This document shows positions 1-18,088 of a stretch of DNA of 58,998 nucleotides, piece after piece. Position 1 is the stretch's first letter; each line of letters opens with the position of its first letter. The notes beneath the pieces are model-generated. The model was not told the origin of the DNA, made no database searches, and worked only from the letters and a program-made list of their open reading frames with translations. Origin of the DNA: Thomasclavelia saccharogumia DSM 17460 (lineage in GTDB: Bacteria > Bacillota_I > Bacilli_A > Erysipelotrichales > Coprobacillaceae); NCBI RefSeq assembly GCF_000686665.1, contig NZ_JMLH01000013.1, positions 1 through 58,998 of the forward strand. Reading direction: 5' to 3'. Both the position numbers and the translations under genes were made by a program.

Positions 1-204
1 ACATCCGGCTTCATATCCTGTTAAAATATCCACCTCATTTTCTTCACTCATTCTTTCTTTAGCTGACTTAATAAATTTAAGAATATTCTTTACTTCAGCA
101 GCACATTTTGTCTGTGCAATAACTTCTCCTGTTGATGAATTGATTCCGCATAAACTGTACGTATTTTTATGGACATCCATCCCAATATAGATTATACTTT
201 TCAT
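1..204 (-). CDS. IS110-family transposase, N-terminal part (cut by window edge)
   Basis: The minus strand from ATG at 204 reads MKSIIYIGMDVHKNTYSLCG and stays open to the window edge, giving 68 residues. The GMDVHK motif near residue 9 matches the first catalytic Asp block of the RuvC-like (DEDD) domain of IS110/IS1111 transposases. These act as site-specific recombinases guided, in studied members, by an element-encoded bridge RNA. An AGGAGG ribosome site lies just upstream of the ATG. The C-terminal Ser domain is outside the window. The family call rests on the N-terminus only. Confidence 0.8.
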   Translation of the reverse strand, partial: MKSIIYIGMDVHKNTYSLCGINSSTGEVIAQTKCAAEVKNILKFIKSAKERMSEENEVDILTGYEAGC

Positions 205-313
205 AGTGACCTCCTATTGTCGTTATGGTATCGACTTTCATAATTTTGTTTTTTTTACAAATCTTATTATGAATCGTAATCCACGTTTTGACAACTTAGG
301 AGGTCACTTCATA
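1..313 (-). mobile_element. End of an IS110-family element abutting a truncated regulator
   Basis: The transposase start at 204 is followed by about 109 non-coding bases, and then by the premature end of the LytTR gene at 314. An 11-bp perfect inverted repeat, AGTGACCTCCT at 205-215 and AGGAGGTCACT at 298-308, lies within this strip. The exact element boundary is not visible; the loss of the regulator's C-terminus suggests it is close to 313. The other end of the element is outside the window. Confidence 0.55.
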
Positions 314-958
314 TTATCTTTTTCTCCTGCTAACCTCTATTATTACATTACTATGTCTTAATTTTATCTTCATCCCTCTCATAAAAGCTATCTTATCAAT
401 ATTTATAATTTGATTTTTATTTACCTGTACAAATTGTGTTGGTAATGTTTTAATAATCTCTTTGATTGGTATATATCCTAAATCATCATTTCCATTTTTT
501 TTATAAACATATAAATGTTTATTCATATATTCAAAAAATAATATTTCAGCAGAATCATAAAAATAAACATCATTTCTTTTTGTCGGAATAATTATTTGAT
601 TATTATTCATATAACCAAAAACTTCTTTTAAAATATTTTTAAGTTCTACTTCTAAGTGATTTTTTATTATATAACCTGCAATATTTATCCCGATTGCTTC
701 TATAATTCGATTATATGATTTAGCAAGAAAAACAATTATTATTTGATTGCTTTTCAATTTTCTAGCAACATTAATTCCATCTATTCCTGGTAAATCCATT
801 TCTAAAAACAATAAATCATAATTATTTTTCTTTTCTAAAAAAAGATGTGGATTTTCATATATATCAATATCAAACCCACTAACTTGACTATTTTCTATTA
901 TTAATTTTTTTATCTTATTACAAAAATGTTTATCACTATCTAAAATAGCTATTTTCAC
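314..958 (-). CDS. LytTR-family response regulator, C-terminus clipped, atypical receiver
   Basis: This 214-residue protein has a receiver domain (about 1-115) and a LytTR DNA-binding domain (about 120-214). The receiver keeps the acidic pocket (D7, D9) and a conserved Lys in the GYIIK stretch. At the phospho-acceptor position, within FLEMDLPGIDG, it has Glu (E53) instead of Asp, which could mimic phosphorylation or make the receiver non-canonical. The LytTR domain ends at VSRRKR, roughly ten residues earlier than usual, right where the IS110 element begins, so the 3' end was probably replaced by the insertion. An AAGGGTG ribosome site precedes the ATG. No sensor kinase is in the window. It may control the repeat-containing promoters at 3199-3274 and 5963-6038 (inference). 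Confidence 0.8.
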   Translation of the reverse strand: MKIAILDSDKHFCNKIKKLIIENSQVSGFDIDIYENPHLFLEKKNNYDLLFLEMDLPGIDGINVARKLKSNQIIIVFLAKSYNRIIEAIGINIAGYIIKNHLEVELKNILKEVFGYMNNNQIIIPTKRNDVYFYDSAEILFFEYMNKHLYVYKKNGNDDLGYIPIKEIIKTLPTQFVQVNKNQIINIDKIAFMRGMKIKLRHSNVIIEVSRRKR

Positions 959-1200: not shown

Positions 1201-2169
1201 TTAATCTCTAAATGATAAAATCATCGCATTATTAATTTTACATTTTTCTCTTTTATCTTTATAAATTACTGTATCAATATTTTTAATGATGTTAAATTTA
1301 TGTATTTCTTTATCATATAAATAATAAATCGTATTATTATCTTCTGTAATATATATTATTGTTTCAAATTTAATATCATTTAATAAAATTTTTTGAATAT
1401 TTCTATTTAAATTTAACTTAAATAAATTTTGTTTATTATCAGCAAAAAAATAATTTTTATTATTTATAGCTACTGATTTTATAAATTCTTGTGTTTCATA
1501 TACCAATGAATGTTCTCCTTCATCGATACTAAATATATAATTTGTTGGTTCTATATAAGGAATATTGTTTTGTTGATTTGTAATATTTTCCAAATTTTTT
1601 GATAACGAATACCCAGATACAATAAATTCATTTGAACCTGGATTAAAATTAACGAGTGAAATATTAAAATCATTATCCCAGCCAATATCTTTTAATTCGT
1701 TATTTTCTAAGTCATAAATATATGGTGTAACCACAATATTATCTTTATTTTTTGAGGCTCCGGCAATAAAAATTTGCGAATCAAATGGTATAATATAATT
1801 TATTGCATAAAAACTATCAGTTAATTGCGTGATTTTTTTTGTCTTTACATTATAAGAAAATATTTGATCAAAATTACCACTATTATCTTTTGCTGTATAA
1901 TAAACAATATCATTCTTTTTATTATAAACTGTTAATGGATATTGAGATGTATAAGGTATTTCTGCTATCTTAATAACTTTTTCATCACTCAAATTAAATT
2001 GATAAATTTCACTCAGTAATTCATTATTTACATCAATAGTTAATGTAAAAGTAATATAATCATTATTTATTAATTCGGGCTCGCTAATATCTACCGGTTC
2101 ATTAGATTTACAACTAGTAAAAAAAACTAGATTTAGTATAAATATAAATATTACTTTGTTCTTTTTCAT
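1201..2169 (-). CDS. Putative lipoprotein, beta-propeller-like
   Basis: The 322-residue product begins with a charged N-terminus, a hydrophobic stretch and the lipobox FFTSC, so it is probably lipidated at about Cys20 and held on the outer membrane face. The rest is made of repeating strand-rich blocks with YIYDLENNELKDI and YNVKTKKITQLTD patterns, as in DUF5050/TolB-like propellers. No catalytic motif was seen. Its start lies 1 bp past the stop of the upstream gene at 2171, so the two are translated from one mRNA. Function is unknown; a role in ligand or glycan sensing is only a guess. Confidence 0.7.
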   Translation of the reverse strand: MKKNKVIFIFILNLVFFTSCKSNEPVDISEPELINNDYITFTLTIDVNNELLSEIYQFNLSDEKVIKIAEIPYTSQYPLTVYNKKNDIVYYTAKDNSGNFDQIFSYNVKTKKITQLTDSFYAINYIIPFDSQIFIAGASKNKDNIVVTPYIYDLENNELKDIGWDNDFNISLVNFNPGSNEFIVSGYSLSKNLENITNQQNNIPYIEPTNYIFSIDEGEHSLVYETQEFIKSVAINNKNYFFADNKQNLFKLNLNRNIQKILLNDIKFETIIYITEDNNTIYYLYDKEIHKFNIIKNIDTVIYKDKREKCKINNAMILSFRD

Positions 2170-2170
2170 A

Positions 2171-2911
2171 TTAGCGATGTCTATAGATTACTTTTTGAGG
2201 CATACTAAAAGAGGAACTCCATTTATATCCCCAAAATTCAACTCCTGTTTTCCAAATATCAAGTACAGCATTGGGCATTCCACCAGCATCTGTTTTTACC
2301 ATACTAACAATCTTTTCAGATCCATCGGCTGTATTTCCGGTCACACTAATAACTGTATTTACTGGACAATTATCATAAGCAAGTTTCGTAGCAACAGAAC
2401 CCTTATAGTTTTTTATATTTGATTGTCCATATTCATCATTAAATGTTGTTGCTCTTCCATGTCCATAAACCCATTCTCCTAATTGATATAAAGCATTATT
2501 GGCAGAACCCCATTTTGCAAATGGTCTTCCTAATGGTAAATCAGGAGTAAAATCCACAAATGGCATAATTTCCATATTTTCATTAAATGCATCATTTAGT
2601 CCAAAATAATCTGGTTCTGTTTTGTTCTCTAATAAAATCGTTTGAATTAATCCATCACTTGCATAAGTTATTTTCATTCCTTTTTGAGGTCTTGGTGTAC
2701 TATTGACAGGTTCTATTTCTATAGACTCCTCTATACTCCCTTTAATAATTTTATACTTATTGTCACTGATAAACTCAATCTCTGTATATGGTTCCATAAT
2801 TTCTGGAATTCTATCATTAGTATATATATTGTTATCTGCTTTTATACCATCAATATCAACTACACAGACTGCTATTAATATCAAAACAACAAATAATACT
2901 TTTTTTAGCAT
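2171..2911 (-). CDS. Secreted protein, possible double-psi beta-barrel
   Basis: I place the start at 2911 (MLKKVLFVVLILIAVC) because an AAGGAAG ribosome site lies just upstream; a longer in-frame start at 2983 lacks one. The 246-residue protein has a signal peptide ending near GIKADN, a variable region, and a C-terminal part of about 100 residues with YDNCPVNTVISVT and TDAGGMPNAVLDIW. This recalls double-psi beta-barrels of RlpA/3D type, but the match is by eye only. It is the first gene of a pair with the lipoprotein and sits about 290 bp downstream of a repeat-containing promoter. Confidence 0.6.
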   Translation of the reverse strand: MLKKVLFVVLILIAVCVVDIDGIKADNNIYTNDRIPEIMEPYTEIEFISDNKYKIIKGSIEESIEIEPVNSTPRPQKGMKITYASDGLIQTILLENKTEPDYFGLNDAFNENMEIMPFVDFTPDLPLGRPFAKWGSANNALYQLGEWVYGHGRATTFNDEYGQSNIKNYKGSVATKLAYDNCPVNTVISVTGNTADGSEKIVSMVKTDAGGMPNAVLDIWKTGVEFWGYKWSSSFSMPQKVIYRHR

Positions 2912-3198
2912 TTTAATTTTACTTCCTTTCCCTGTATATTTTTTATATTTACTAAATAATGATTTATCAAAACATGCAAACAATATTATAAATTATATGC
3001 TGATGCATTAATTTAATATTAACAAAGCAATAAAACTATAATGTTTTAATAATAATAAGAAAAATATATATTTTTCTAATAAATATCCTCAATCTACAAT
3101 TCAAAGAAATACAAAAAAATAATTCATAATAGATAAAATAGCATTAGTAATATTTTTATCACCTCTCTCACTATTTTCCCAGTTAACTGATATTTGAT

Positions 3199-3274
3199 AA
3201 TTCTATTATAGATGATTTAATTCAGTTTTTTATTTTTTTTGACTCAACGGCTTAATTAAAAGATCCATCGGTTA
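3199..3274 (-). promoter_or_regulatory. Promoter with LytTR-type direct repeat (site 1)
   Basis: Read on the minus strand, TAACCGATG (3274-3266), a 12-bp spacer and AAGCCGTTG (3253-3245) form a 21-bp-period direct repeat. Exactly 34 bp later comes TATAAT (3210-3205). No TTGACA-like box is seen 17 bp upstream of the -10, which suits an activator-dependent promoter. It would drive the secreted protein and lipoprotein genes through a leader of about 290 bases. Confidence 0.65.
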
Positions 3275-3390
3275 AAAAAGAGCTGTACTGAATAAATAAT
3301 TATTTTACAGTTTCATAAAAGGACAAAATAAATTTTGTCCACCTGGGTGATAGTGCCTTTTAAATGCCTATCATCCTTTTTGGTATTATA

Positions 3391-3606
3391 ATGATTTTAA
3401 GAGATATTCTCAAAGTAAAATACAGTTATGAGCATAAAAAGAAAGTAAACAATCAATCTGACCGATGGAATACAAGAGATGTGGTTATTGAAAAAGAAGG
3501 AATCGAATGAATACTGGAAGCGTTTTTAGGTAAAGAGAATCAAGGATACAGCTGTCAGTGTTCAAAATGCAATGAAACTATGACTAGGAAAAAACAATAT
3601 TTCTAA
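3391..3606 (+). pseudogene. Remnant of a transposase zinc-binding N-terminus (IS91-like)
   Basis: From ATG at 3391 the frame reads MILRDILKVKYSYEHKKKVN, meets an in-frame TGA at 3508-3510, and continues with ILEAFLG and GYSCQCSKCNETMT to a TAA at 3606. The ILRDIL start and the Cys-x-Cys-x2-Cys cluster resemble the zinc-binding N-terminal domain of IS91-type transposases. It is far too short for a working enzyme, and no other part of the element was found nearby. Confidence 0.4.
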
Positions 3607-3953
3607 CACTTTTTTAGTTAAATAAACTAATTTTTAAAATTAAATAACAAAATATTAGATTAAAAAAGAGACCTCTTTAATAACATGGTATTAACAATAT
3701 CTCACATTATTAGAAGTCTCTTTTAATTAAAATCTTAAGTTATTTTTGCAAATTTTAACTGATTCGAGAAGATATATACTCACTAGATTTTTAAGACTAA
3801 TTTTTATAAACTTAATAATCATCCTTCTTTTAAAATATTGTTTATTCTATAGCAACCTTTATCTTATAATTTATATATTTAAATTATTATAGATTATTAA
3901 TCTAACTTAATGATATTGTACTGAAGTATAAATATTTAAAGTAATAGTTTCCT
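3607..3953. other. AT-rich intergenic stretch with one hairpin
   Basis: Apart from the hairpin at 3664-3724, I see no reading frame or motif here. It separates the transposase remnant from the small membrane protein at 3954. Confidence 0.5.
3664..3724. terminator. Bidirectional hairpin terminator
   Basis: AAAAGAGACCTC and GAAGTCTCTTTT pair around an AT-rich loop, with A and T tracts on either side, so it could stop transcription in both directions. Confidence 0.5.
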
Positions 3954-4199
3954 TTATTTCATCTTTTGGTCTTTTTCTATTGATTTAAACTTTATAAAGA
4001 ATATTATAGAAAACACTATAAATCCTTGTATTAAAAATGTAGAAAAATTCTCACCAGCAAAACGAATACCACAAGCATTAATAGTTATAGATATTAAAAC
4101 AAAAATAAATCCAATTAACATAGATATAGCTGCATACAAAATATTGACTAATATTTTTGAAGTTGTTTTTTTATTAATATTCTCAACAATTTTTTTCAA
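3954..4199 (-). CDS. Small two-helix membrane protein
   Basis: The 81-residue product starts with TTG at 4199, chosen because a strong AAGGAGAGGGG ribosome site lies just upstream and no ATG fits. It has a Lys-rich N-terminus and two hydrophobic segments (about 18-42 and 53-70) ending in a charged tail. I do not recognise a family. It lies in the same orientation as the secreted-protein genes upstream and may belong to their cassette. Confidence 0.55.
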   Translation of the reverse strand: MKKIVENINKKTTSKILVNILYAAISMLIGFIFVLISITINACGIRFAGENFSTFLIQGFIVFSIIFFIKFKSIEKDQKMK

Positions 4200-4315: not shown

Positions 4316-4650
4316 TTACCACAAATAATCACTTATGTTAGGATAACCATTCTCTAAATTAATTCCATTATATATATAATCTATATTTTTAAAAATATGG
4401 TCATTTGATAAATATTCTTCAACTACTTTAAATTTTAATCTAATTATATCATTAGCCTGATATTGATTAGTTAAATTACCATTAAATTTCCATTCAGTAG
4501 AATAGTCTTTATTATCAAAAATAAAACTAGTACTACTATCACTCTCATATCTTGGAAATATATTATGTCTCCTATATTATAATCTTTCAAGTCATTTACA
4601 TACGTTTGAGTAGCTTAATCATAAAATTGATTTGACAAGTCTACAATACT
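4316..4650 (-). pseudogene. Broken secreted-protein fragment, possibly an OB-fold module
   Basis: One frame reads IVDLSNQFYD, then an in-frame TAA, then ATQTYVNDLKDYNIGDIIF and about 80 more residues ending in NISDYLW and TAA at 4316-4318. Apart from that one stop it looks coding, with a GNLTNQYQANDIIRLKF stretch similar to short OB-fold modules. It follows directly on the 4649 gene in a different frame, so it could be the frameshifted C-terminal part of that protein. No ribosome site was found for a separate start. Confidence 0.45.
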
Positions 4651-5299
4651 AAGTACCCTTACCATTAAAAGATTTAGGACTATTTATTTGATAATTAGAT
4701 CTAATAGTATAAACTTTTGTATTATCCTCTGTGATAATATATTCAACCATTTTCCCTTCAGTAGTTACTGCTTTTCTTACCCCAAATCTTAAAACGTAGT
4801 TGAAATCATATAATGTATAATAACATATCCATTTACTTGCATCATTTTCAACAAATCTTAATTGATATGTACCATATGGATTTGCAGAGTCATAACTTGC
4901 TAACTGTCCTTGAGTAATTGATTTATTAATAACATCTCTTTTTCCATCAGGTGTTGTAAGAATAACAGATATTTTATCAGACCAGTTTAACATGTCCGTT
5001 TTAGCATATGCATCAACAGCCATTCTAGACCAAGGAAGATCTACTGAAACTTTAGCTGCTGCTCCTGTATTTCCTTGATTAAAATAAATAGAACCAGTAT
5101 TTGAACAAACATAATTATCTCCAATTTCAATACTTGGGCTTCTAGAATAAAAAGCAGTTGATGCTTTTTTTAAAATATACCATAATGCAGTTTTTGCAAA
5201 CGATAAACCCGCTCCTGCTTCAACATTTGTTATAGTAACAGTACATAAACTCAATGATAAACAAATACATGTTATAAATCATAATAATTTCCTTTTCAT
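4649..5299 (-). pseudogene. Secreted protein gene with TGA inside the signal peptide
   Basis: A good ribosome site (AAAGGAATGTGAGG) precedes ATG at 5299. The frame reads MKRKLL, then TGA (5281-5279), then FITCICLSLSLCTVTITNV, and stays open for 200 more residues. The interrupted segment is a typical signal peptide, so the gene was intact until a recent change, most simply TGG to TGA. A TTG at 5254 could start a leaderless 201-residue product but has no ribosome site. The mature part (about 170 residues) is strand-rich with no known motif. UGA decoding as Trp is unlikely, since the long genes here end normally. Confidence 0.6.
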
Positions 5300-5692: not shown

Positions 5693-5899
5693 CTATGTTT
5701 TTTCAATCAAAATTTCTTTAATTTTTTTTAAAACCAAAAGAATAATTGGAAAAATTAAAACTATATATATAAATACAAACAAACAAAGAAACATTACCTC
5801 AGATACCATATAATAGAAAAAATTAGCAATATAAAGATATAAATACGAAAGAAAAACTGCAATATCAAATAATATTACATATATAATTACCTTCCGCAT
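5693..5899 (-). CDS. Small membrane protein downstream of LytTR-type site 2
   Basis: This 68-residue protein starts MRKVIIYVILFDIAV after a GAAGGTG ribosome site. It is almost entirely hydrophobic, with two predicted membrane segments (about 3-28 and 35-58) and a Lys-rich end. No family was recognised. It lies about 70 bp downstream of the TATAAT of the promoter at 5963-6038, making it the first gene expected from that promoter. It could be an immunity-type or signalling membrane protein, but nothing in the sequence decides this. Confidence 0.6.
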   Translation of the reverse strand: MRKVIIYVILFDIAVFLSYLYLYIANFFYYMVSEVMFLCLFVFIYIVLIFPIILLVLKKIKEILIEKT

Positions 5900-5962: not shown

Positions 5963-6038
5963 ATCTTTATTATACATCAATTGTTTCTCATTATGATGCT
6001 TTTTAATCCAACGGTTAAATTTAAGGATTCATCGGTCA
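5963..6038 (-). promoter_or_regulatory. Promoter with LytTR-type direct repeat (site 2)
   Basis: Minus strand: TGACCGATG (6038-6030), 12 bp, TAACCGTTG (6017-6009), then exactly 34 bp to TATAAT (5974-5969). Element sequence, spacer length and distance to the -10 are the same as in site 1 at 3199-3274. No -35 hexamer is visible. The predicted transcript begins about 60 bp before the gene at 5899. Confidence 0.65.
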
Positions 6039-6076: not shown

Positions 6077-7756
6077 TTATTTATTTTTTAAATCAGTAGC
6101 ATCAAATGCCTCAGCAATTGGTCCCCCTGGTGCAACCATTGGGAATACCTTATCATCTTTATCAATTATACATTCAATTACAATTGGTCCATCATATTCC
6201 ATTGCTTCTTTAATAGCAGGAACTAATTCTTCTTTCGTTGTAACTTTAATTGCTTTGCATCCTAAACCTTCAGCAACTTTACAAAAATCAACTTTATCAG
6301 CTAAAATCGTATTTGAATAACGTTGACCATAGAATAATGTTTGCCATTGACGAACCATTCCTAACACTCGATTATTAATAACTACTTGAATTACTGGAAT
6401 ATTATAACGACTTAATGTTGCTAATTCATTCATATTCATTCTAAAGCAGCCATCACCAGCAATATTGAAAACTGTTTGATGAGGATTACCAAGTTTAGCG
6501 CCCATAGCAGCCCCTAAACCAAATCCCATCGTTCCCGCTCCACCTGATGAAACGAATTGACGAGGGCGTTTATAGCGATAATATTGAGCAGCCCACATTT
6601 GATGTTGTCCTACATCAGTACAAATGATAGCTTCACCATTTGTCAAATAATCTATTTGTTCAATAATATATGGTCCTGTTAACCCTTCACTATCATAGTT
6701 TAAAGGATATTGTTCTTTTAAATCACGAACTTCTTTTAACCACTGAGGATGATTTTGTCTTGTAAGTTTTGTATTTAATTCTGTTAATACACTCTTAGCA
6801 TCCCCAACAATTCCTAAATCAACAATTACATTTTTATTAATTTCAGCCGCATCAACATCAATATGAATAATTTTAGCATCTTTAGCAAAGCGTTTAGTAT
6901 CGCCAGTAACGCGATCAGAAAAGCGAGCACCAATAGCAATCAACAAATCACATCTACTAACTCCAAAATTAGAAGCTTTAGTACCATGCATCCCAATCAT
7001 TCCTGTATAACGAGGACGAGTATTATCATAAGCACCTTTACCCATTAATGAATCAGTAACTGGAGCATCAATTTTTTCCGCAAATTCTTTTAATTCATTA
7101 GATGCATCACTAGCAATGGCCCCACCACCAACAAAGATAAAAGGCTTTTCACTAGCTTCTATCATTTTTATTGCCTGATCTATCTCTTGTGATCCATATG
7201 TATATCGACGTGGTTCAATTACATCCGGTACACATGGCTCAAAATCAATTGTAGCTGCTGTAACATCTTTAGTAATATCAACTAATACTGGCCCTGGACG
7301 TCCTTCTTTAGCAATTTGAAAAGCTTTACGAATTGTTGGAGCTAATTCATTAATATCTTTAACAATAAAATTATGTTTAGTAATTGGCATTGTCACCCCA
7401 GCAATATCGATTTCCTGGAAACTATCGCGCCCTAACAGTGATACAGCTACGTTAGCAGTAATTGCCACAAGAGGAGTTGAATCCATATATGCTGTAGCAA
7501 TCCCTGTAACTAAATTAGTCGCCCCGGGTCCTGAAGTTGCCATACATACTCCAACTTTTCCTGTTGCTCTAGCATATCCATCAGCCGCATGTGCAGCCCC
7601 TTGTTCATGAGATGTTAAAATATGATGAATTTTATCTTGATATCTGTATAATGCATCATAAATATTTAAAATCGTCCCCCCTGGATAACCAAATACAGTA
7701 TCTACACCCTGTTCGATCAAACATTCTGCAACAATTTCCGAACCTGTTAACTTCAT
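6077..7756 (-). CDS. ilvB: Acetolactate synthase, large catalytic subunit
   Basis: This 559-residue ThDP enzyme makes acetolactate (or acetohydroxybutyrate) from pyruvate, the first shared step of Val/Leu and Ile synthesis. The catalytic Glu is E51 in [12 protein letters not shown]. The FAD/central domain spans about 190-330, and the ThDP-Mg motif runs from GDGCF (about 434) to VINN. Length is normal. It is the last gene of the operon, 20 bp after ilvD, while its small subunit ilvN is the second gene, so the two subunits are encoded 5.7 kb apart. Regulation is by the T-box upstream of leuA and, by family knowledge, by feedback through IlvN. Confidence 0.95.
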
Positions 7757-7776: not shown

Positions 7777-9453
7777 TTATTTTTCTTCTTTAGCTTCAAG
7801 AATTGCTCCACGATCAGCAGAAGTTACCATTGACGCATATCTTACTAGATATCCTGTTGTAATTCTTGGTTTTCTTGGCTGCCATTTAGCTTTACGTTTA
7901 GCCAATTCTTCATCACTTACTTCAACATTCATTGAATGTTCTAAAATATTAATATTGATAATATCGCCTTCTTCAACTAATGCAATCGGTCCACCTGAAG
8001 CTGCTTCTGGAGAAACATGTCCAATCGAAGCTCCTCTAGTAGCTCCAGAAAAACGACCATCAGTAATCAAAGCAACATCTTTATCTAATCCCATTCCTGC
8101 AATTTCACTTGTAGGTGATAACATCTCACGCATTCCTGGTCCTCCTTTTGGACCTTCATAACGAATTACAACAACATCACCCTTAACGATCTTACCAGCT
8201 CTAATTGCCGCGATAGCATCGTCTTCACTATCAAAAACACGGGCTGGTCCACTATGAACCATCATTTCCTGAGCTACTGCTGATTGCTTTACTACAGCTC
8301 CATTAGGCGCTAAATTACCTTTTAAGACCGCAATTCCTCCAAATGGCGCATATGGTTTCTCAACTGGACGAATAATTTCAGGATTCAAGTTTACACATCC
8401 TTTAATATTTTCACCAACTGTTTTACCAGTTACCGTCATAATATCAGTATATAATAAACCAAGTTTATTAATTTCATTCATTACCGCATAGACACCACCA
8501 GCATCATTTAAATCTTCCATAAATGTGTCTCCAGCTGGAGCTAAATGACATAAGTTCGGTGTTTTTTTACTAATCTCATTGGCAATTTCTAAATTTAATT
8601 CAACTCCAGCTTCATGAGCTATAGCTGGTAAATGAAGCATTGAGTTAGTTGAACATCCTAACGCCATATCAATAGTTAATGCATTATGAAAAGCTTTTTC
8701 ATTCATAATATCACGTGGTCTAATATTCTTTTTAATACACTCCATGATCTGCATTCCGGCATGCTTAGCCAACCTAATCCTTTCACTATATACAGCGGGA
8801 ATCGTACCATTTCCCTTAAGACCCATTCCTAAAACTTCAGTTAAGCAGTTCATTGAATTAGCGGTATACATTCCTGAACATGATCCACAAGTTGGACAAG
8901 CTTTTTGCTCAATTTCATGAAGTTTTTCTTCAGTTATCATACCAGCATTAAACTGACCAACAGCTTCAAATAATGAAGATAGGCATGTTTTATTCCCATC
9001 TACTTTACGCCCTGCTAACATTGGTCCTCCTGATACAAAAACAGTTGGAATATTTAAACGAGCTGCTGCCATTAATAAACCAGGTACGTTTTTATCACAA
9101 TTAGGAATCATAACTAAACCATCAAATTGATGTGCTGTTGCTAGTGCTTCTGTACTATCAGCAATTAATTCTCGAGTAACTAATGAATATTTCATTCCTG
9201 TGTGATTCATTGCAATTCCATCACATACGGCAATAGCTGGTACCTCAACTGGCACCCCACCAGCTAAATAAATTCCTTTTTTTACAGCATCTGCAATTTT
9301 ATCAAGATTCATATGCCCTGGAACAATTTCATTATATGAATTTACAACCCCTATCAATGGTCGTTCTAATTCTTCATCAGTATATCCTAAGGCATTAAAT
9401 AATGATCGATGTGGCGCTCTTTCAGTTCCGCTTTTTACATTATCACTACGCAT
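7777..9453 (-). CDS. ilvD: Dihydroxy-acid dehydratase
   Basis: The 558-residue enzyme dehydrates dihydroxy-isovalerate and dihydroxy-methylvalerate to the 2-keto acids of the Val and Ile pathways. Cluster-ligand cysteines are visible at C119 ([10 protein letters not shown]) and in [15 protein letters not shown] (C185, C188, C191). The C-terminal part has the GRFSGATRG motif. Length matches the IlvD/Edd family, and the position between leuB and ilvB supports IlvD over a sugar-acid dehydratase. The Fe-S cluster makes it oxygen-sensitive in studied members. Confidence 0.95.
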
Positions 9454-9466
9454 CTTATTTCCCCCT

Positions 9467-10555
9467 TTATTTTTTTAAATTAGCAACTATTAAGTCACCC
9501 ATTTCTTTAGTTCCTACTTTTGTTTTATTTTCTGACATGATATCGGCAGTCCGATATCCTTGTTTTAAGACTTTTTCAATTGCTTCTTCTATATCTTTAG
9601 CTTCTTGATCTAAATCAAATGAATAGCGAAGCATCATTGCCGCCGATAAAATCGTCGCAATCGGATTAGCAATATTTTTACCAGCAATATCTGGAGCACT
9701 ACCATGACTTGGTTCATACATCCCAAATTTATCTTCTCTTAAAGAAGCACTTGATAACATCCCGATCGATCCTGTCACCATACTTGCTTCATCACTTAAA
9801 ATATCGCCAAACATATTTTCTGTCAAAATAACATCAAATTGTTTAGGATCTTTAACTAACTGCATTGCACAGTTATCTACTAACATATGTTCTAAAGTTA
9901 CTTCAGGATAGTCATTAGCTACTTCACTTACAACTTTGCGCCATAATCTTGAAGTATCAATAACATTTGCTTTATCAACACTAGTAACTTTTTTATTACG
10001 TTTCATCGCAATATCAAATGCTCGCTTAGCAATTCTTTTAATTTCTGTTTCACTATAACTCATCGCATCACGAGCAACTAATTCACCATTTTCTTCTTTA
10101 GTTGAACGCTTTCCAAAATATAATCCCCCTGTAAGTTCGCGCATGATCATCATGTCAAACCCACCTTCAGTTAATTCTTCTTTTAATGGGCATGCTCCTT
10201 TTAATTCATCATATAAAACAGCTGGTCTTAAATTTGCAAATAACCCTAGCTCTTTACGAATTTTTAATAACCCAGCTTCAGGGCGAAGACTAGGTTCTAA
10301 TTTATACCAGGGTGAAGTAGTTGTATCACCACCAATTGATCCTAATAAAACACTATCACTATTTTTGGCAACTTCTAATGCCTCATCAGTTAAGGGGACA
10401 CCATGTACATCAATTGATGCCCCACCCATTAAAATTTGCGTATAGTTAAATTTATGATTATATTTATTAGCAACAGCATCTAAAACCTTCATCGCTTCAC
10501 CAACGATTTCTGGTCCAATTCCATCACCTTTAATTACTGCAATATTTTTTTCCAT
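9467..10555 (-). CDS. leuB: 3-isopropylmalate dehydrogenase
   Basis: This 362-residue NAD-dependent beta-decarboxylating dehydrogenase converts 3-isopropylmalate to 2-ketoisocaproate. Family signatures visible are GDGIGPEI near the N-terminus, the substrate Arg cluster around [22 protein letters not shown], and [13 protein letters not shown] followed by [13 protein letters not shown]. It starts 5 bp after the stop of leuD and is followed 13 bp later by ilvD, inside the single operon. Confidence 0.95.
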
Positions 10556-10560
10556 GATTC

Positions 10561-11040
10561 TTACCCCTTTTTACTATTTACATAATTGACTAAGCCATCA
10601 ACTTCAATCATTTTTTGTAAGAATTCTGGAAACGGCTGACTTTGATAAGTTTGCCCTTTTGTAACATTAGTGATTAAACCCGATGAAAAATCAACAGTTA
10701 CTTCATCACCTTGATCAATACCCGCTACTGCTTCAGGACATTCCATGATTGGAAAGCCAATATTGATTGAATTACGATAAAAGATACGTGCAAAACTTTC
10801 CGCAATTACACATTTAGTTCCTGCTGTCTTCAAACATAATGGTGCATGTTCTCGAGAAGAACCACATCCAAAGTTCTTTCCCGCAACAATAATATCACCA
10901 TCTTCAACTGTTTTAGCAAAGTCAGGATCTATATCCACCATTGCATGACTAGCTAACTCTTTAGCATCAAACGAATTTAAATAACGAGCAGGAATAATTA
11001 CATCTGTATCTACGTTATCACCATATTTATATATTTTCAT
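10561..11040 (-). CDS. leuD: 3-isopropylmalate dehydratase, small subunit
   Basis: The 159-residue protein is the swivel domain of isopropylmalate isomerase and works with LeuC. It contains [15 protein letters not shown] and the conserved [14 protein letters not shown] loop. The short length is that of the bacterial/archaeal LeuD type paired with a 420-residue LeuC. Its ATG overlaps the leuC stop codon by one base (TAATG), so the two subunits are translationally coupled. Confidence 0.94.
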
Positions 11041-12314
11041 TACTCTTCACCTACTTTTTCAGGATTTGCGATATATCCAGCAATAGCACTAGCTGCTGCT
11101 ACTTCTGGAGAAGCTAAATAAATCAATGCTTCAGTATCACCCATACGCCCAACAAAATTACGATTAGTCGTTGAAACACATTTTTCACCTTTGGCCATTA
11201 CACCCATATGACCACCCATACAAGGACCACAGCTTGGTGTATTAAAAGCACATCCAGCTTCAACAAAAATCTCTGCTAAACCTTCCTGGATGCATTGAAT
11301 AAAGATTTTTTGTGTTGCTGGAACGACCATTACTCGAACGTTTTTAGCAACTTTTTTTCCTTTAAGAATTGCTGCTGCTTTACGTAAATCAGATAAACGA
11401 CCATTAGTACAAGAACCAATCACTACTTGATCGATCATAATTTTATCCATTGCTTCAATTTCATCGATCGTATGACCATTTCCTGGAAGATGCGGGAATG
11501 CCACAGTTGGTCTTACTTCACTTAAATTTATTTCGATCACTTCATCATAATCAGCATCTTCATCAGCTTCATAAATTGTATATTCTTTAGTAGAATGATT
11601 TTTCATATAATCAATTGTTAAAGCATCAACTGGAAAAATTCCATTTTTAGCTCCAGCTTCAATTGCCATATTACAAATCGTAAAACGATCATCCATAGTT
11701 AAATATTGAATTCCTTCGCCTACAAATTCCATACTTTTATAACGAGCCCCGTCAACTCCAATTTTCGTAATGATATGTAAAATAATATCTTTTCCACTTA
11801 TATATTGCGAAGGTTTTCCAGTTAAAACAAATTTAATTGCACTAGGAACTTTGAACCAAAGTTCTCCAGTTGCCATTCCGGTTGCGATATCAGTAGTACC
11901 GACTCCAGTAGAAAAAGCTCCTAAAGCACCATAAGTACATGTATGAGAATCCGCTCCAATGATACATTCTCCAGCTACAACGATCCCTTTTTCTGGTAAA
12001 ATCGCATGTTCAACACCACATTTACCTTGTTCCATATGATGAGTTAAACATTGCTTATTAGAAAAATCTAAAATTGCTTTAGAATTTTCTGCTGATTTAA
12101 TATCTTTATTTGGCGTAAAATGATCTGGCACTAATACAACTTTATCTTTATCAAAAACCTTGTCTGCCATTTGATAAAAAATTGGTAACGCCATTGGTCC
12201 GGTAATGTCATTAGCCATGACAACATCAAGTTTTGCCTCGATCAATTGTCCAGCTGCAACTTCATCTAAACCAGCATGTTTTGCTAAAATTTTTTGTGTC
12301 ATAGTCATTGCCAT
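11040..12314 (-). CDS. leuC: 3-isopropylmalate dehydratase, large subunit
   Basis: This 424-residue aconitase-family subunit carries the [4Fe-4S] cluster for 2- to 3-isopropylmalate isomerisation. Cluster cysteines are seen in GSCTNGR (about 300) and [11 protein letters not shown] (about 360), and the substrate region has [15 protein letters not shown]. The shorter length marks the LeuC2-like branch also used by homoaconitases, but the gene context with leuA, leuB and leuD makes isopropylmalate the likely substrate. An 88-bp gap with two stem-loops separates it from ilvC upstream. Confidence 0.94.
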
Positions 12315-12346
12315 GATTATAATCCCCCTTATCTTGACCTTTGTAG

Positions 12347-12401
12347 GTTGTAATTAGGGAGTAGTTTACTCCCTAGTTACAACACACAAAAGTGTGTGTT
12401 G
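12347..12401 (-). promoter_or_regulatory. Two base-sharing stem-loops between ilvC and leuC
   Basis: Stem A pairs CAACACAC (12380-12387) with GTGTGTTG (12394-12401). Stem B pairs two 17-base arms (12347-12363 and 12367-12383) with one mismatch and a 3-base loop. They share 12380-12383, so both cannot form fully at once. No T tract follows, so a simple terminator is unlikely. mRNA processing, differential stability or partial attenuation are possible. Confidence 0.6.
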
Positions 12402-12402
12402 A

Positions 12403-13949
<1,547 letters not shown>

Positions 13950-13968
13950 GTCATTGGCTCCCTTCTTC

Positions 13969-15645
13969 TTATTTCATTGCCTTAGTTAAGCGATTCATTC
14001 CTGATACAATTGCTTTTATTGTTGCCGTTGTAATATTTGGATGAATCCCTACACCATATTCTTGACAAGCACTTCCCTTAGCCCTTAAATAAACATAAGC
14101 TGCCGCTTTTGAACTTGATCCTGAAGTTAAAGCATGCTCACTATAATCTAATAAATGCGAATGTAATTCTGGAAGTGAATTCAAGGCGTTTTTCACAGCA
14201 TCAATTGGTCCATTTCCATAACCCGTTAAAGTTACAACTTCACCATGTGCTTCAATCGTAATTTCTGCCCGTCTTTCATATTCAGTTTCATCTTCACTTA
14301 TATCAACCAGCTTTTGTTTAATAAAGCGATAAGGTTCTTCGTTATCTACATACTCTTCAATAAATGTATCATAAACTCTTTCTGGAGAAACTTCTCCTTC
14401 TTCTTCACTTATATCTTGAATTATTTTTGCAAAATCCACTTGTAATCCTTTTGGTAAATGGAATCCGTACATACTTTCCATCACATAAGCAACGCCACCT
14501 TTACCTGATTGTGAATTAATTCGCACAATTGGTTCATATTGGCGCCCAACATCACTTGGATCAATAGGTAAATAAGGCACTTCCCAAATACCATCATTTC
14601 TTTCCTGCATCGCATGCATTCCTTTATTGATTGCATCTTGATGACTACCAGAAAAAGCCGTAAAAACTAACTTTCCGACATACGGATGACGTGGTGGAAC
14701 TTCCATCTTAGTAACTTTTTCATATACATGTTTTATATTATTAATATTACTTACCTCAAGTTTTGGGTCAACTCCTTGAGTAAACATATTTAAAGCAACA
14801 TTGACAATATCAACATTTCCAGTTCTTTCACCATTTCCAAAAATAGTTCCTTCAACACGATCAGCACCAGCCATAATACCAAGTTCTGTTGCTGCAACAC
14901 CACATCCACGATCATTATGCGTGTGTAATGAAAGAATTACTCGTTCACGATCTTTAAAATGTGTTGACATCCATTCAATTTGGTCAGCATAAACATTTGG
15001 CGTTGACATTTCTACTGTCGATGGCAAATTAATAATCACTTTCTTATCTTTTGATGCTCCCCATTCATCCATTACAGCTTCACACACTTCTAAAGCATAG
15101 TCTAATTCTGTTCCTGTAAAGCTTTCTGGTGAATATTCAAGAATCACTTCTCCATCAAATTCTTTACTTAAATCTTTAACTAATTTAACACCATCAATTG
15201 CAATTTGTTTAATTTCTTCTTTCCCCTTATTAAATACCACATCTCTTTGTAATACTGAAGTAGAATTATAAACATGTACGATTGCTCTTTTTAATCCTTT
15301 TAACGATTCAAATGTCTTTCTGATCAAATGTTCCCTTGCCTGAGTCAAGACTTGTACTGTGACATCATCAGGAATTAAATTTTCATCAATTAAAATTCTT
15401 AAAAAATCATATTCTATTTGACTAGAAGAAGGAAAACCAACTTCTATTTCTTTAAATCCCATATCAACTAAGAGTTGAAACATTTCCACTTTTTCTTCTA
15501 TTTTCATCGGTGTGATCAAGGCTTGATTACCATCACGTAAATCAACAGAAACCCATGTTGGCGCTTTTTCAATTTGTTTATCAGGCCAAGTACGTTCTTT
15601 AAAGCTGATTGGTTCAAATCTCTTATACTTTTGATAATTCATCAT
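13969..15645 (-). CDS. leuA: 2-isopropylmalate synthase (long LeuA type)
   Basis: The start at 15645 (MMNYQKYKRF) is chosen because GAGGAGG lies 9 bp upstream; an earlier in-frame ATG at 15663 overlaps that ribosome site. The 558-residue enzyme condenses acetyl-CoA with 2-ketoisovalerate, the first committed leucine step. The catalytic DLRDGNQAL motif (D35, R37, D38) and metal-binding HTHNDRG are seen in the TIM barrel. The C-terminal LeuA dimer domain (about 430-558) binds leucine for feedback control in the family. Its length and WVSVDLRDGNQ sequence mark the actinobacterial/clostridial-type LeuA. It is the first gene of the T-box-controlled operon. Confidence 0.95.
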   Translation of the reverse strand: MMNYQKYKRFEPISFKERTWPDKQIEKAPTWVSVDLRDGNQALITPMKIEEKVEMFQLLVDMGFKEIEVGFPSSSQIEYDFLRILIDENLIPDDVTVQVLTQAREHLIRKTFESLKGLKRAIVHVYNSTSVLQRDVVFNKGKEEIKQIAIDGVKLVKDLSKEFDGEVILEYSPESFTGTELDYALEVCEAVMDEWGASKDKKVIINLPSTVEMSTPNVYADQIEWMSTHFKDRERVILSLHTHNDRGCGVAATELGIMAGADRVEGTIFGNGERTGNVDIVNVALNMFTQGVDPKLEVSNINNIKHVYEKVTKMEVPPRHPYVGKLVFTAFSGSHQDAINKGMHAMQERNDGIWEVPYLPIDPSDVGRQYEPIVRINSQSGKGGVAYVMESMYGFHLPKGLQVDFAKIIQDISEEEGEVSPERVYDTFIEEYVDNEEPYRFIKQKLVDISEDETEYERRAEITIEAHGEVVTLTGYGNGPIDAVKNALNSLPELHSHLLDYSEHALTSGSSSKAAAYVYLRAKGSACQEYGVGIHPNITTATIKAIVSGMNRLTKAMK

Positions 15646-15659
15646 TTTATTTTTCCTCC

Positions 15660-15978
15660 TCATTTATTTTAAATACTTATAAAAAAACCTTCGCACTCAA
15701 AATGACTCCTGTCACTTTGAGGACGAAGGTATAGTAACCCCGTGGTTCCACCTCAATTCATTAATACCTCACGATATTAATCTCACTAAGTACGCTATTA
15801 TATAGTTAGTTCATACTCTTGCTAGATAACGGTTGCATTCCGTAGCCACCTACTTGATTCAGCGCTCCACTCAAGGATGAGTTCAATAAACCTTCAACAG
15901 CTCTTTCCACCAGCCAGAACTTCTCTACGCTTGAAAAATTTATCTACTAGTTCCTATCAAAGTATTTAAGTTATGTTA
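15660..15978 (-). ncRNA. T-box leader (Leu, CUC specifier) of the leu-ilv operon
   Basis: On the minus strand the leader has a stem I region with GAACTCATCC, giving specifier CTC (15881-15879) for leucine, and the T-box core GGTGGAACCACGGGG near 15752-15738. A strong terminator follows, with CCTTCG...GTGAC and GTCA...CGAAGG arms ending in a run of seven T (about 15730-15673). Uncharged tRNA-Leu would favour the antiterminator and switch on the operon. The acceptor-pairing bases read UGGA, which would match a tRNA ending UCCA; this is odd for leucine. Confidence 0.9.
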
Positions 15979-15984
15979 CTGAAT

Positions 15985-16013
15985 ATGATAGCCCGATATT
16001 TTGTCGAAGTCAA
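15985..16013 (-). promoter_or_regulatory. Promoter of the leu-ilv operon
   Basis: TTGACT (16013-16008), a 17-bp spacer and TATCAT (15990-15985) precede the T-box leader, predicting a start near 15978. It is a good vegetative (SigA-type) promoter. Confidence 0.7.
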
Positions 16014-16037
16014 CCTTTTTTCATAAATTTTAAAGAC

Positions 16038-16064
16038 AATTAATTATCACTGTGATAATTAATT
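16038..16064. repeat. 27-bp perfect palindrome
   Basis: The 13-base arms AATTAATTATCAC and GTGATAATTAATT flank a single central base. It lies between the stop at 16084 and the leu-ilv -35 box, 24 bp upstream of the latter. It has no T tract, so it may be an operator or a weak terminator of the preceding gene. Confidence 0.55.
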
Positions 16065-16083
16065 ATTTCACAAAACCATCAAC

Positions 16084-16722
16084 CTAAAAAACCTTGGAAA
16101 TATCAGCGTTTATTTGTTTATCTCTAATTATATCATCAGAATTCAAAATAACTTTAGACGCATACTTTGCATCAACAATATAATCATCTAATAAACCTTT
16201 TTCATATTTATTTTTTAAATCAAAATACATTGTATAATCAAATGTATAGGTTTTAATAATTTCATTATTTGGATAAACCAGCATAAAAACTAATTCATTA
16301 TGATTATTAACCAAAAACAAACGATACGTTGCCTTACTCGTTATTGTACTTCTTATCTTATTTTTCATAATTTCGACAATTCGATCATCTAAATTATGTT
16401 CTTTTATAATAATTTTTTCTTTAAGTTCATTTAGTTCTTTGACAAATCTTATTTGATATTTATTTACATCCATTTTTGATATTTTTTTTGATCCATCATG
16501 AGATAAAATAACTGCATATTTCAACTTATCATCATAATATACACACTCATATACTATTTTTTGATAATGACCACAATAACTGCAACGATATAAAAATAGT
16601 TCATCATTAAATATTAATTCCTTTGCTCTCAAATTATCGCTTTTAATAATCGGGAACAGTTTCTTCGTTCCTTTTTCCAAACAGTGAATACACGTAATTT
16701 CTAATTCAACTTCATCATTCAT
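16084..16722 (-). CDS. CpXC-like zinc-binding protein
   Basis: The 212-residue protein begins with two Cys pairs, C11/C14 (ITCIHC) and C47/C50 (YRCSYC), spaced as in the CpXC domain, a predicted zinc-binding module common in gut Firmicutes. The remainder is charged, with no membrane segment and no recognised catalytic site, so it is probably cytoplasmic. It stands alone between the leu-ilv promoter and the divergent CapA-like gene. Function is unknown. Confidence 0.7.
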   Translation of the reverse strand: MNDEVELEITCIHCLEKGTKKLFPIIKSDNLRAKELIFNDELFLYRCSYCGHYQKIVYECVYYDDKLKYAVILSHDGSKKISKMDVNKYQIRFVKELNELKEKIIIKEHNLDDRIVEIMKNKIRSTITSKATYRLFLVNNHNELVFMLVYPNNEIIKTYTFDYTMYFDLKNKYEKGLLDDYIVDAKYASKVILNSDDIIRDKQINADISKVF

Positions 16723-16862
16723 AATTTCAACTCCTCGATAACATTTTACTAAATTAAAAATACTAAAATAGCTAATTTATCTTAAGAAATCATTTAGTTT
16801 TTATAAAAATAATTAAGTATACGTTTTATCCTTATATGTTAAAATATATAGTGGTGATAAAA

Positions 16863-18053
16863 ATGCGTAGATTGAAATGGCCCTTTAAAATAATTCTATT
16901 TATTATTTTATTTACAATTATTAATACTAGCTGGAATTATTATTCTACAAACAAAAAAACATCTGATAAAATTCCAGCCAAATCAACAACTACAGTTACA
17001 GCATCCTTTATTGGAGACTTATTATATGAACAGCCTTATTATGACTGGCTTGGTTCCAATTATGAAAATAAGGGTTATTATGATTTAGTAAAACCTTACT
17101 TTTTAAATGATGATCTAACTCTCGCTAATATGGAGGTGCCAATCGGAGGAAGTGAATTAGGTATTTCTGGCAAAGGTTATAGTTTTAATGCACCTATACA
17201 AATTGGTCAAGAAGTTATTGATATGGGTGTTGATGCCCTTAATCTTGCTAACAATCATGCTAATGATGCCGGAATTGAAGGACGCAATAATACAATCAAT
17301 TTTTTTAATAAACATAATATTTTAACTACTGGGGTATATTCATCTGTTGAAGATCGACAAAAAATCAAAACAAAAAAAATTAACAATATTACATTCAGTT
17401 TTCTTGGTTACACTTATAAAACTAATAAACTAGATTATCAAAATCAAAATTTAATTGGTTATTATCGTAATCTTGATACGATGAAACTAGATGATGAGCA
17501 TAAAGATATTATTAAAAATGAAGTTAAACAAGCTAAACAAATTAGTGATGTAGTAATCGTTAGTATGCATTGGGGCAATGAATTTACTTACACTGTCAAC
17601 GATGAACAAAAAGAACTAGCTAATTATTTAAATGAGTTGGGCGTTGATATAATTATTGGTCATCACTCGCATTGTATCCAGCCAATCGAATGGTTGGAAA
17701 ACAACGATCATAAAACCCTTGTTGCATACTCATTAGGCTCTTTTGTCTCAGCAGATAATCAAGTTACTCGAGCTACAAATGAATTTGCCAATGCATATAA
17801 CATTTCTATGATCTTGCAAACAGAGTTTGAAAAAAAAGAGCATAAAACTTCAATAAAAAAAGTTACTTATACCCCAATCATTAATTACTATGATCAAAAC
17901 TTTGAAAATTTTAAACTTGTTCCTTTAAATCTCTATGATGAAGAACTAGAAACAAGTCATGATCGTTATTCAAAAGGATTGAACAAAGATTTTATTATTA
18001 ATAGTTTTAACAATGTAATTGATCAACAATTTAATATTAATTATATCAAATAA
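16863..18053 (+). CDS. CapA-family metallophosphatase-like membrane protein
   Basis: The start at 16863 (MRRLKWPFKIILF) has a GTGGTGAT ribosome site; an earlier ATG at 16836 does not. The 396-residue protein has one N-terminal membrane anchor and an extracytoplasmic CapA/PgsA fold with GDLLYE, NMEVPIGG, NLANNHANDAG, MHWGNE and GHHSHCIQPIE, the usual metal-site blocks. CapA proteins belong to poly-gamma-glutamate synthesis, but no capB or capC is nearby, and many stand-alone CapA homologues have other or unknown envelope roles. Confidence 0.85.
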   Translation: MRRLKWPFKIILFIILFTIINTSWNYYSTNKKTSDKIPAKSTTTVTASFIGDLLYEQPYYDWLGSNYENKGYYDLVKPYFLNDDLTLANMEVPIGGSELGISGKGYSFNAPIQIGQEVIDMGVDALNLANNHANDAGIEGRNNTINFFNKHNILTTGVYSSVEDRQKIKTKKINNITFSFLGYTYKTNKLDYQNQNLIGYYRNLDTMKLDDEHKDIIKNEVKQAKQISDVVIVSMHWGNEFTYTVNDEQKELANYLNELGVDIIIGHHSHCIQPIEWLENNDHKTLVAYSLGSFVSADNQVTRATNEFANAYNISMILQTEFEKKEHKTSIKKVTYTPIINYYDQNFENFKLVPLNLYDEELETSHDRYSKGLNKDFIINSFNNVIDQQFNINYIK

Positions 18054-18088
18054 AAATATAGACCAAATTTAGGTCTATATTTTTATTT
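18054..18088. terminator. Bidirectional terminator between capA-like gene and ddl
   Basis: AAATATAGACC and GGTCTATATTT pair around AAATTTA, with A and T runs outside. It serves both convergent genes. Confidence 0.8.

What the first reader, a model, noticed from the sequence alone, without database searches (positions are those of the whole stretch)
314..958. Response regulator with Glu at the phospho-acceptor site, clipped by IS110
E53 replaces the expected Asp in FLEMDLPG, which may make the regulator active without a kinase. The DNA-binding domain stops at VSRRKR, exactly where the IS110 element begins, losing roughly the last ten residues. A partly damaged but perhaps constitutive activator would explain decay of its target genes.
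Basis: partly seen in the sequence, partly recalled or inferred. Interest (0 to 1): 0.55.

Follow-up and report, generated by a model that had tools for sequence, protein, structure and literature searches.

The report
Kinase-less quorum-sensing regulator, clipped by transposon
A gut bacterium's gene switch, descended from a quorum-sensing system, seems to have lost its sensor and its normal on-off site long ago while its DNA docking sites were kept, and in this strain a jumping gene has cut off its tail.

Summary
Window 314-958(-) is a receiver+LytTR response regulator with Glu53 in place of the acceptor Asp, cut by an IS110-family element. It loses 14 residues (215-228), not about ten; they lie beyond the element's right end on contig C29.

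The interpretation needs re-casting. Glu53 is not damage. Two relatives (T. cocleata, MAG S24_Bin3) have intact 228-aa proteins with Glu53 and with the second metal-binding Asp also lost (N8; S8 here). Three other congeners have the Asp form at the same position beside ilvB; two of them show a complete agr quorum-sensing locus (agrA-agrC-agrB-agrD), the third is cut off after the start of agrC. The Glu form has no agrC, agrB or agrD beside it. It is most likely an AgrA orthologue turned kinase-less pseudo-receiver.

Its probable DNA sites survive: an 11-bp direct repeat with 21-bp period, 30 bp upstream of TATAAT. In nine genomes all eight matches with two or fewer mismatches lie in or near this locus, including the agrC-agrB gap of two Asp-type species.

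Constitutive activity is inferred, not shown. The clipped window allele is probably impaired; the nearest sister species lost most of the gene independently by deletion.

The parts
317..958 (-). Truncated AgrA-type pseudo-response regulator, 214 codons (receiver 3-110, LytTR 131-213 by Pfam); D7, S8, E53, A79, K99; GTG start
   Evidence: Pfam; alignment; pocket residues
314..316 (-). TAA stop supplied by the IS element
1..316 (-). Left part of an IS110-family (IS1111-like) element: left end and start of the DEDD transposase (1-204); the rest lies off the contig, right end at G000:C29:1-298
6005..6036 (-). Box pair A: two 11-bp direct repeats, 21-bp period, probable regulator site
5969..5974 (-). 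TATAAT, 30 bp downstream of box pair A
5693..5899 (-). 68-aa membrane-protein-like ORF (by eye) directly behind promoter A; no Pfam match
4649..5254 (-). 201-aa ORF (TTG start as listed), no Pfam match; its equivalent is fused to the regulator remnant by deletion in sister G007
3954..4199 (-). 81-aa ORF in a 425-bp block 95% identical in DNA to the T. cocleata bacteriocin-like island
3241..3272 (-). Box pair B, probable regulator site
3205..3210 (-). TATAAT, 30 bp downstream of box pair B
2171..2911 (-). 246-aa protein with signal-peptide-like start (by eye), next sizeable gene behind promoter B (start at 2911 chosen by eye); no Pfam match at E<=0.01
1201..2169 (-). 322-aa lipoprotein-like ORF (by eye); weak Kelch matches below cut-off
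6077..7756 (-). ilvB (acetolactate synthase large subunit, named by recognition), positional anchor shared with Asp-type agr loci

Best explanation
The regulator is an AgrA orthologue that has become a kinase-less pseudo-receiver. In an ancestor of the window species, MAG S24_Bin3 and T. cocleata, the agr locus beside ilvB lost AgrC, AgrB and AgrD, while agrA was kept with Asp53->Glu and Asp8->Asn/Ser (shown by comparison; order of events not resolved). Its LytTR domain most likely still binds the ancestral direct-repeat sites, now in front of local genes, and activates them without phosphorylation, Glu53 acting as a weak phospho-mimic or the fold resting in the active state (inferred). In the window strain an IS1111/IS110-type element has inserted after codon 214 and removed the last 14 residues from the frame. 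With the GTG start and the loss of the Thr79 switch residue this allele is probably weak or dead (inferred).
For: Glu53 with N8 in two intact 228-aa relatives. Same strand and same side of ilvB as three Asp-type genes, G002, G004, G008. In G002 and G004 the gene is followed by a kinase (GHKL by Pfam in G002; 73% identical in G004), an AgrB over Pfam's cut-off and an AgrD-like 34-aa ORF; G008 shows only the kinase's first 49 residues at a contig end. Glu-type genomes: no match to that AgrC at E<=0.001 in G001 and G003, only 27-28% matches elsewhere in G000 and G007; no AgrB on the regulator's contigs; no AgrD core in 6 stretches around the Glu-clade loci, found in 3 of 3 Asp-type stretches. Tree of 25 chosen regulators: Glu clade 100/100, sister to the ilvB-linked Asp clade at 87/83. 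Box pairs: 19 hits at <=3 mismatches in 9 genomes; all 8 with <=2 lie in or within 9 kb of this locus, including the agrC-agrB gap of G002 and G004; reversed-pattern control 2 hits. TATAAT at +30 in 7 of 7 Glu-clade sites. Purifying selection: G003 vs G001 dN/dS 0.25 (bootstrap 0.17-0.37).
Against: No expression or binding data. dN/dS of the Glu clade (0.25-0.35) is 3-7 times that of the Asp clade (0.05-0.08, where dS is saturated), and RR dN relative to ilvB is 3.9-6.8 against 2.4-2.9: constraint is relaxed. Sister-group support 87/83 is moderate. G005's agr locus (regulator 31% identical) carries no matching box pair at <=3 mismatches. The box pattern was built from Glu-clade sites, so only the G002, G004 and G001:C44:2764 hits are independent. 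Asp->Glu alone is often not sufficient for constitutive activity (PMC4395418, passages). All nine genomes of the genus have some AgrB, so other agr circuits exist. G003 is 89% complete, so absences there are weaker.
Confidence: 0.66

Rival explanations
1. The window gene is simply a dying pseudogene with no current function; Glu53 and the truncation are both stages of decay after the quorum-sensing system was lost.
For: IS truncation, GTG start, T79->A in the window; independent ~4.6-kb deletion removing codons 1 to ~160 in sister G007; raised dN/dS; G007 box A has a 20-bp instead of 21-bp period.
Against: Intact reading frames and dN/dS well below 1 in both domains across the Glu clade; D7, E53, K99, VNKNQIINIDKI and EVSRRKR identical in all three; box pairs intact in three species. 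For the window allele itself this rival is quite likely; for the Glu family it is not.
Confidence: 0.25
2. The Glu-type protein is an antagonist or repressor on the shared box pairs, not an activator, in the way PlnD opposes PlnC.
For: PlnC and PlnD bind the same repeats with opposite effect (PMC2714321, abstract and passages seen); nothing here measures the sign of regulation.
Against: The site sits upstream of the -10 with a layout like that of the pln promoters. No other relative above 33% identity was found in the own genome, so no obvious partner on the same boxes is known.
Confidence: 0.15
3. The protein is regulated by another signal (small molecule, partner protein, other modification) instead of being constitutive.
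For: Such control is known for other pseudo-receivers (PMC12632262, passages seen). The receiver remains under purifying selection, dN/dS 0.21-0.38, which a purely constitutive form would need less.
Against: No conserved partner gene was recognised beside it in the three species, though this was not searched for systematically.
Confidence: 0.2
4. The Glu clade descends from a paralogue (like G004:C12 or G008:C328), not from the ilvB-linked agrA, so no quorum-sensing locus was lost here.
For: Sister support only 87/83; two Asp-type paralogues fall close; synteny is shared on the ilvB side only.
Against: Same position and strand beside ilvB, higher identity (44-47% against 39-40%), and box pairs shared with the ilvB-linked agrC-agrB gap.
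Confidence: 0.1

Closest known systems
AgrA of agr quorum-sensing systems (receiver + LytTR)
   Same: Domain order, direct repeats upstream of the promoter, orthologous position in Asp-type congeners with agrC, agrB and an agrD-like ORF
   Different: Acceptor Asp and second acid replaced; no AgrC, AgrB or AgrD beside it
Aspartate-less receivers / pseudo-receivers (PMC4395418, PMC12632262; passages seen)
   Same: Glu at the D position is the commonest change and Asn at DD2 is common, as here; Lys kept
   Different: Here an Asp-type orthologue with its kinase, and DNA sites shared by both forms, can be named within one genus
PlnC/PlnD type bacteriocin regulators (PMC2714321; passages seen)
   Same: Tandem repeats with 21-bp period directly upstream of the promoter (9-bp repeats + 12-bp spacer there); bacteriocin-like exporter genes in the T. 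cocleata island
   Different: Those work with a kinase and an inducing peptide
S. aureus agrA 3'-end frameshift (Traber and Novick 2006, cited in PMC8768832; passages seen)
   Same: Change at the extreme C-terminus of an AgrA; reported as delayed activation, not a true null
   Different: There a frameshift at the last residue (I238); here 14 residues lost, starting within the LytTR profile (match ends at position 89 of 98)
IS1111/IS110 elements with seekRNA/bridge RNA (PMC11187229; passages seen)
   Same: DEDD transposase, subterminal inverted repeats, long non-coding stretch behind the transposase, no target duplication beyond an ambiguous AGA
   Different: Guide RNA not shown here; the right-end RNA did not fold better than shuffles

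Membership tests
LytTR response regulator (AgrA/AlgR type) | Receiver domain followed by LytTR domain | tested here: met
   Both Pfam models over cut-off
LytTR response regulator (AgrA/AlgR type) | Complete LytTR domain | tested here: not met
   Window allele stops at profile position 89 of 98; the G002 relative reaches 97 of 98
Aspartate-less receiver / pseudo-receiver | No Asp at the acceptor position in a reliable alignment | tested here: met
   E53 in 3 of 3 Glu-clade proteins, D in 4 of 4 others; 30 D, 5 E, 3 N among 38 aligned homologues (sample biased to near relatives)
Aspartate-less receiver / pseudo-receiver | Activity independent of acceptor phosphorylation | not testable with these tools
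   Needs binding or reporter assay
agr quorum-sensing system | AgrA with adjacent AgrC kinase, AgrB and AgrD | tested here: not met
   Absent beside the Glu-type gene; present in G002 and G004
agr quorum-sensing system | AgrA-type direct repeats at target promoters | tested here: met
   Box pairs with 21-bp period; binding itself untested
IS110/IS1111 family | DEDD transposase | tested here: met
   Window fragment only 15.5 bits, below the 29 cut-off; PF02371 59.5 bits, over cut-off, beside a copy of the same right end on C8
IS110/IS1111 family | Subterminal inverted repeats and non-coding stretch downstream of the transposase (IS1111 type) | tested here: met
   GAAGTGACC... / ...GGTCACTTC ends and no ORF of 60 aa or more over C29:1-298

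The most novel reading that the evidence does not exclude
Within one genus a peptide quorum-sensing system was converted into a signal-blind local regulator: the signal, exporter-protease and kinase genes were lost, the receiver took a phospho-mimic Glu and lost a metal ligand, and its ancestral agrB-promoter boxes were re-used in front of bacteriocin-like and secreted-protein genes. This would be a traceable natural case of how a pseudo-receiver arises from a working two-component system.
Probability: 0.45. Interest if true: 0.6.

Novelty: new variant of a known kind. Interest (0 to 1): 0.45.

Why it matters
What activates and inactivates bacterial pseudo-receivers is called a major unknown in PMC12632262 (passages seen). 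Here Asp-type and Glu-type orthologues exist in species of one genus at one chromosomal position with recognisably the same DNA sites, so the steps can be tested by swapping alleles and promoters in harmless laboratory hosts. For the window strain itself the gene is probably a weakened relic.

Tried and rejected
Structure prediction of the full-length relative and of the truncated window protein (3-row alignments) failed: mean pLDDT 33.7 and 36.0, so no fold search was made and nothing is concluded from them. Searches of solved structures: the full-length profile matched 83 sequences, the alignments shown being of receivers only; the LytTR part gave nothing below E 0.07. So whether DNA-contact residues survive the truncation could not be tested. 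A generic LytTR consensus recalled from memory found, at the threshold used, no pair in the window (first 8 kb), G001 or G002 and one in the G004 stretch; the box pair was found instead by comparing promoter regions. The idea that Glu53 is new damage was dropped. The idea that target-gene decay follows from this regulator was dropped: the HlyD-like export gene of the T. cocleata island has no match at E<=0.001 in 5 of the 6 genomes searched, including the two Asp-type ones, so it may be an acquisition in T. cocleata as well as a loss here. Folding of the IS right-end RNA was no better than shuffles (z -0.56). G006 and G005 regions around ilvB were fetched but not analysed. The tree used 25 rows chosen by me from the 38. 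Literature: in the PMC library held (open licences only), no paper with three of the terms pseudo-receiver, quorum sensing, AgrA, 'histidine kinase loss'; orphan AgrA terms gave 20 papers, 10 listed, none on a kinase-less Glu AgrA by title and abstract start; Thomasclavelia with quorum sensing gave 5 listings, none on agr by title and abstract start. These searches do not prove absence from print. Papers: passages seen for PMC4395418, PMC12632262, PMC8768832, PMC11187229, PMC4227749, PMC2714321; Traber and Novick 2006 known only through its citation in PMC8768832.

Full report
WHAT IS THERE. The window is an entire contig (G000:C12) of a genome whose nearest named species hit is Thomasclavelia cocleata DSM 1551; that the genus is Thomasclavelia is inferred from this. 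The window's first base lies inside an IS110-family element. On the minus strand, 958 to 314, runs a 214-codon gene with a receiver and a LytTR DNA-binding domain, both over Pfam's cut-offs. In an alignment of seven congeneric proteins without internal gaps residue 53 is Glu in the window, in MAG S24_Bin3 (L028) and in T. cocleata (L029), and Asp in the four others. The other pocket residues are D7, S8, A79, K99 in the window, D7, N8, T79, K99 in the two Glu-type relatives, and D7, D8, T79, K99 in the four Asp-type proteins. So the second acidic metal ligand is gone in the whole Glu clade, and the window has lost the Thr switch residue too. In 38 aligned homologues from the loci I had fetched (a sample biased to near relatives) the acceptor is Asp in 30, Glu in 5 and Asn in 3.

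THE CLIPPING. The six relatives are 227-228 aa; T. cocleata ends ...VSRRKRREVFELMIRAINRI. The window reads ...VSRRKR and then the stop TAA, which belongs to the element: the same bases stand at the left end of copies on C50 and in G003, G002 and G007. The missing 14 codons and the sequence beyond them are on contig C29, immediately behind the element's right end. The sister genome G007 has the uninterrupted site. So the truncation is a simple insertion and not a deletion; an AGA triplet is shared by both junctions. The Pfam LytTR match stops at position 89 of 98. Whether such a protein still binds DNA I could not test: both structure predictions failed. A precedent is the S. aureus agrA 3'-end frameshift, described as delaying agr activation and not as a true null (PMC8768832, passages seen).

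WHERE THE GENE COMES FROM. In G002 and G004 genes recognised as leuB-ilvD-ilvB are followed on the same strand by an Asp-type regulator, a 419-aa kinase and an AgrB-family protein. Pfam names the G002 kinase GHKL and the next protein AgrB; the G004 kinase is 73% identical, and in both genomes the AgrB match is over its cut-off. Both have a 34-aa AgrD-like ORF overlapping the end of agrB. G008 shows ilvB, the regulator and the first 49 residues of the kinase at a contig end. These are agr quorum-sensing loci. G005 has a comparable set away from its ilvB, with a more distant regulator, 31% identical. In the Glu-type species the regulator lies on the same side of ilvB and on the same strand (window; T. 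cocleata; in G003 ilvB and the regulator are on different contigs), but other genes come behind it. No AgrB lies on its contigs, no match to the G002 kinase was found in G001, G003 and G006 and only 27-28% matches at other loci in G000 and G007, and the AgrD core motif, present in 3 of 3 Asp-type stretches, is missing from the 6 Glu-clade stretches scanned, G007's included (the looser part of that pattern, N-aromatic-S/C-P, matched three times there, none of them followed by GG as in AgrD). All nine genomes do have some AgrB, so other agr circuits remain. A tree of 25 chosen regulators puts the Glu clade together (100/100), the ilvB-linked Asp clade together (100/100), and the two as sisters with moderate support (87/83).

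THE DNA SITES. Comparing promoter regions showed a shared block: two 11-bp direct repeats, roughly ACC[GA][TA]T[GC][GA]ATC, with starts 21 bp apart, and TATAAT exactly 30 bp downstream in 7 of 7 Glu-clade sites, G007 included; it is 31 bp in the G002 and G004 sites, counted by eye. This is the layout of LytTR regulator sites such as PlnC/PlnD (9-bp repeats, 12-bp spacer, directly upstream of the promoter; PMC2714321, passages seen). A scan of nine genomes with up to three mismatches gave 19 hits. All eight with two or fewer mismatches lie in or near this locus: two in the window (3241-3272 and 6005-6036), three in T. cocleata (one of them 8.5 kb beyond the regulator), one in G003 beside ilvB, and one each in G002 and G004, these last two in the short gap between agrC and agrB. 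The eleven hits with three mismatches lie elsewhere. The reversed pattern gave two hits, both in G005. The pattern was built from Glu-clade sites, so the G002, G004 and G001:C44:2764 hits are the independent ones. G005's own agrC-agrB gap gave none, so 2 of the 3 agrC-agrB gaps assembled for this regulator group carry the pair. The simplest reading is that the Glu-type protein has kept the DNA specificity of the ancestral AgrA; binding is not shown.

SELECTION. Pairwise dN/dS in the Glu clade is 0.25 to 0.35, below 1 in both domains (largest bootstrap upper bound 0.63); in the Asp clade it is 0.05 to 0.08, with saturated dS. Relative to ilvB, the regulator's dN is 3.9-6.8 times in the Glu clade and 2.4-2.9 times in the Asp clade. 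The Glu form has therefore been maintained but under weaker constraint. In G007, the nearest sister by ilvB (99%), a deletion of about 4.6 kb of window-equivalent sequence has removed codons 1 to about 160, and its box pair A has a 20-bp instead of a 21-bp period. So two independent inactivating or damaging events hit this gene in the branch of the window species.

HOW IT PROBABLY WORKS. Inferred: the Glu-type protein binds the box pairs without phosphorylation and turns on small local operons. In T. cocleata these lie around an ABC exporter, a HlyD-like protein and small peptides, and a secreted protease-like protein with a lipoprotein (the Pfam match is below cut-off). In the window they are a 68-aa membrane-protein-like peptide and a secreted protein with a lipoprotein, named by eye and without Pfam matches over cut-off. 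Glu is the commonest replacement at the D position of aspartate-less receivers (26%) and can mimic phosphorylation, although often not alone (PMC4395418, passages seen); Asn at DD2 is also typical (PMC12632262, passages seen). The sign of regulation and constitutivity are not shown. The window allele, clipped, with GTG start and T79->A, is probably weak or dead.

VERDICT. The family is a pseudo-receiver derived from AgrA, a new variant of a known kind.

Noticed in passing
window 1-316; L044 (G000:C29) 1-310: The IS element's right flanks in four copies read CAGAAGGGAAG, CAGAAAGGAGAAATTATG, CAGAAAGGATGATT and CAGAAAGGGGAAAAGG: it seems to insert at ribosome-binding-site-like AAAGAAAGG. A fifth, diverged copy in G002 has the unlike flank AGGTGTACAAAG. 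The right-end non-coding stretch holds TCCTTTCTTTG, the complement of that target, as a seekRNA guide would; the regulator's AAAAAGAAGGG codons look like a near-match.
   Followed up: partly
L051 (G007:C126) about 9450-9850: Sister genome: a deletion fuses the equivalent of the window's 201-aa ORF to codon ~160 of the regulator, leaving a remnant with the intact 3' end.
   Followed up: yes
L029 2-1875; reverse complement of L100 (bases 9001-20000) at 1702-3843: In T. cocleata the bacteriocin-type ABC exporter next to the Glu-type regulator appears as two ORFs (445 and 257 aa), so it may itself be broken or frame-shifted.
   Followed up: no
L100 897-2795 (G001:C44): A third T. cocleata box pair, 8.5 kb beyond the regulator, stands upstream of a 354-aa secreted papain-like-protease-like ORF (Pfam below cut-off) and a small lipoprotein.
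   Followed up: partly
L048 3553-3657(-); L049 3976-4080(-); L050 8516-8623(+): AgrD-like ORFs of 34-35 aa with the core NNYSPGG / DNYSPGG and no cysteine in that core, in all three Asp-type agr loci with agrB on the same contig; a serine-type peptide signal, if real, would be uncommon (recalled, not tested).
   Followed up: partly
L006 (G000:C107) 547-1104: Another LytTR regulator remnant in the same genome with 7 stop codons.
   Followed up: no
L025, L026: Two other LytTR regulators in the wider family also carry Glu at the aligned acceptor position, so Glu replacement may have arisen more than once.
   Followed up: no
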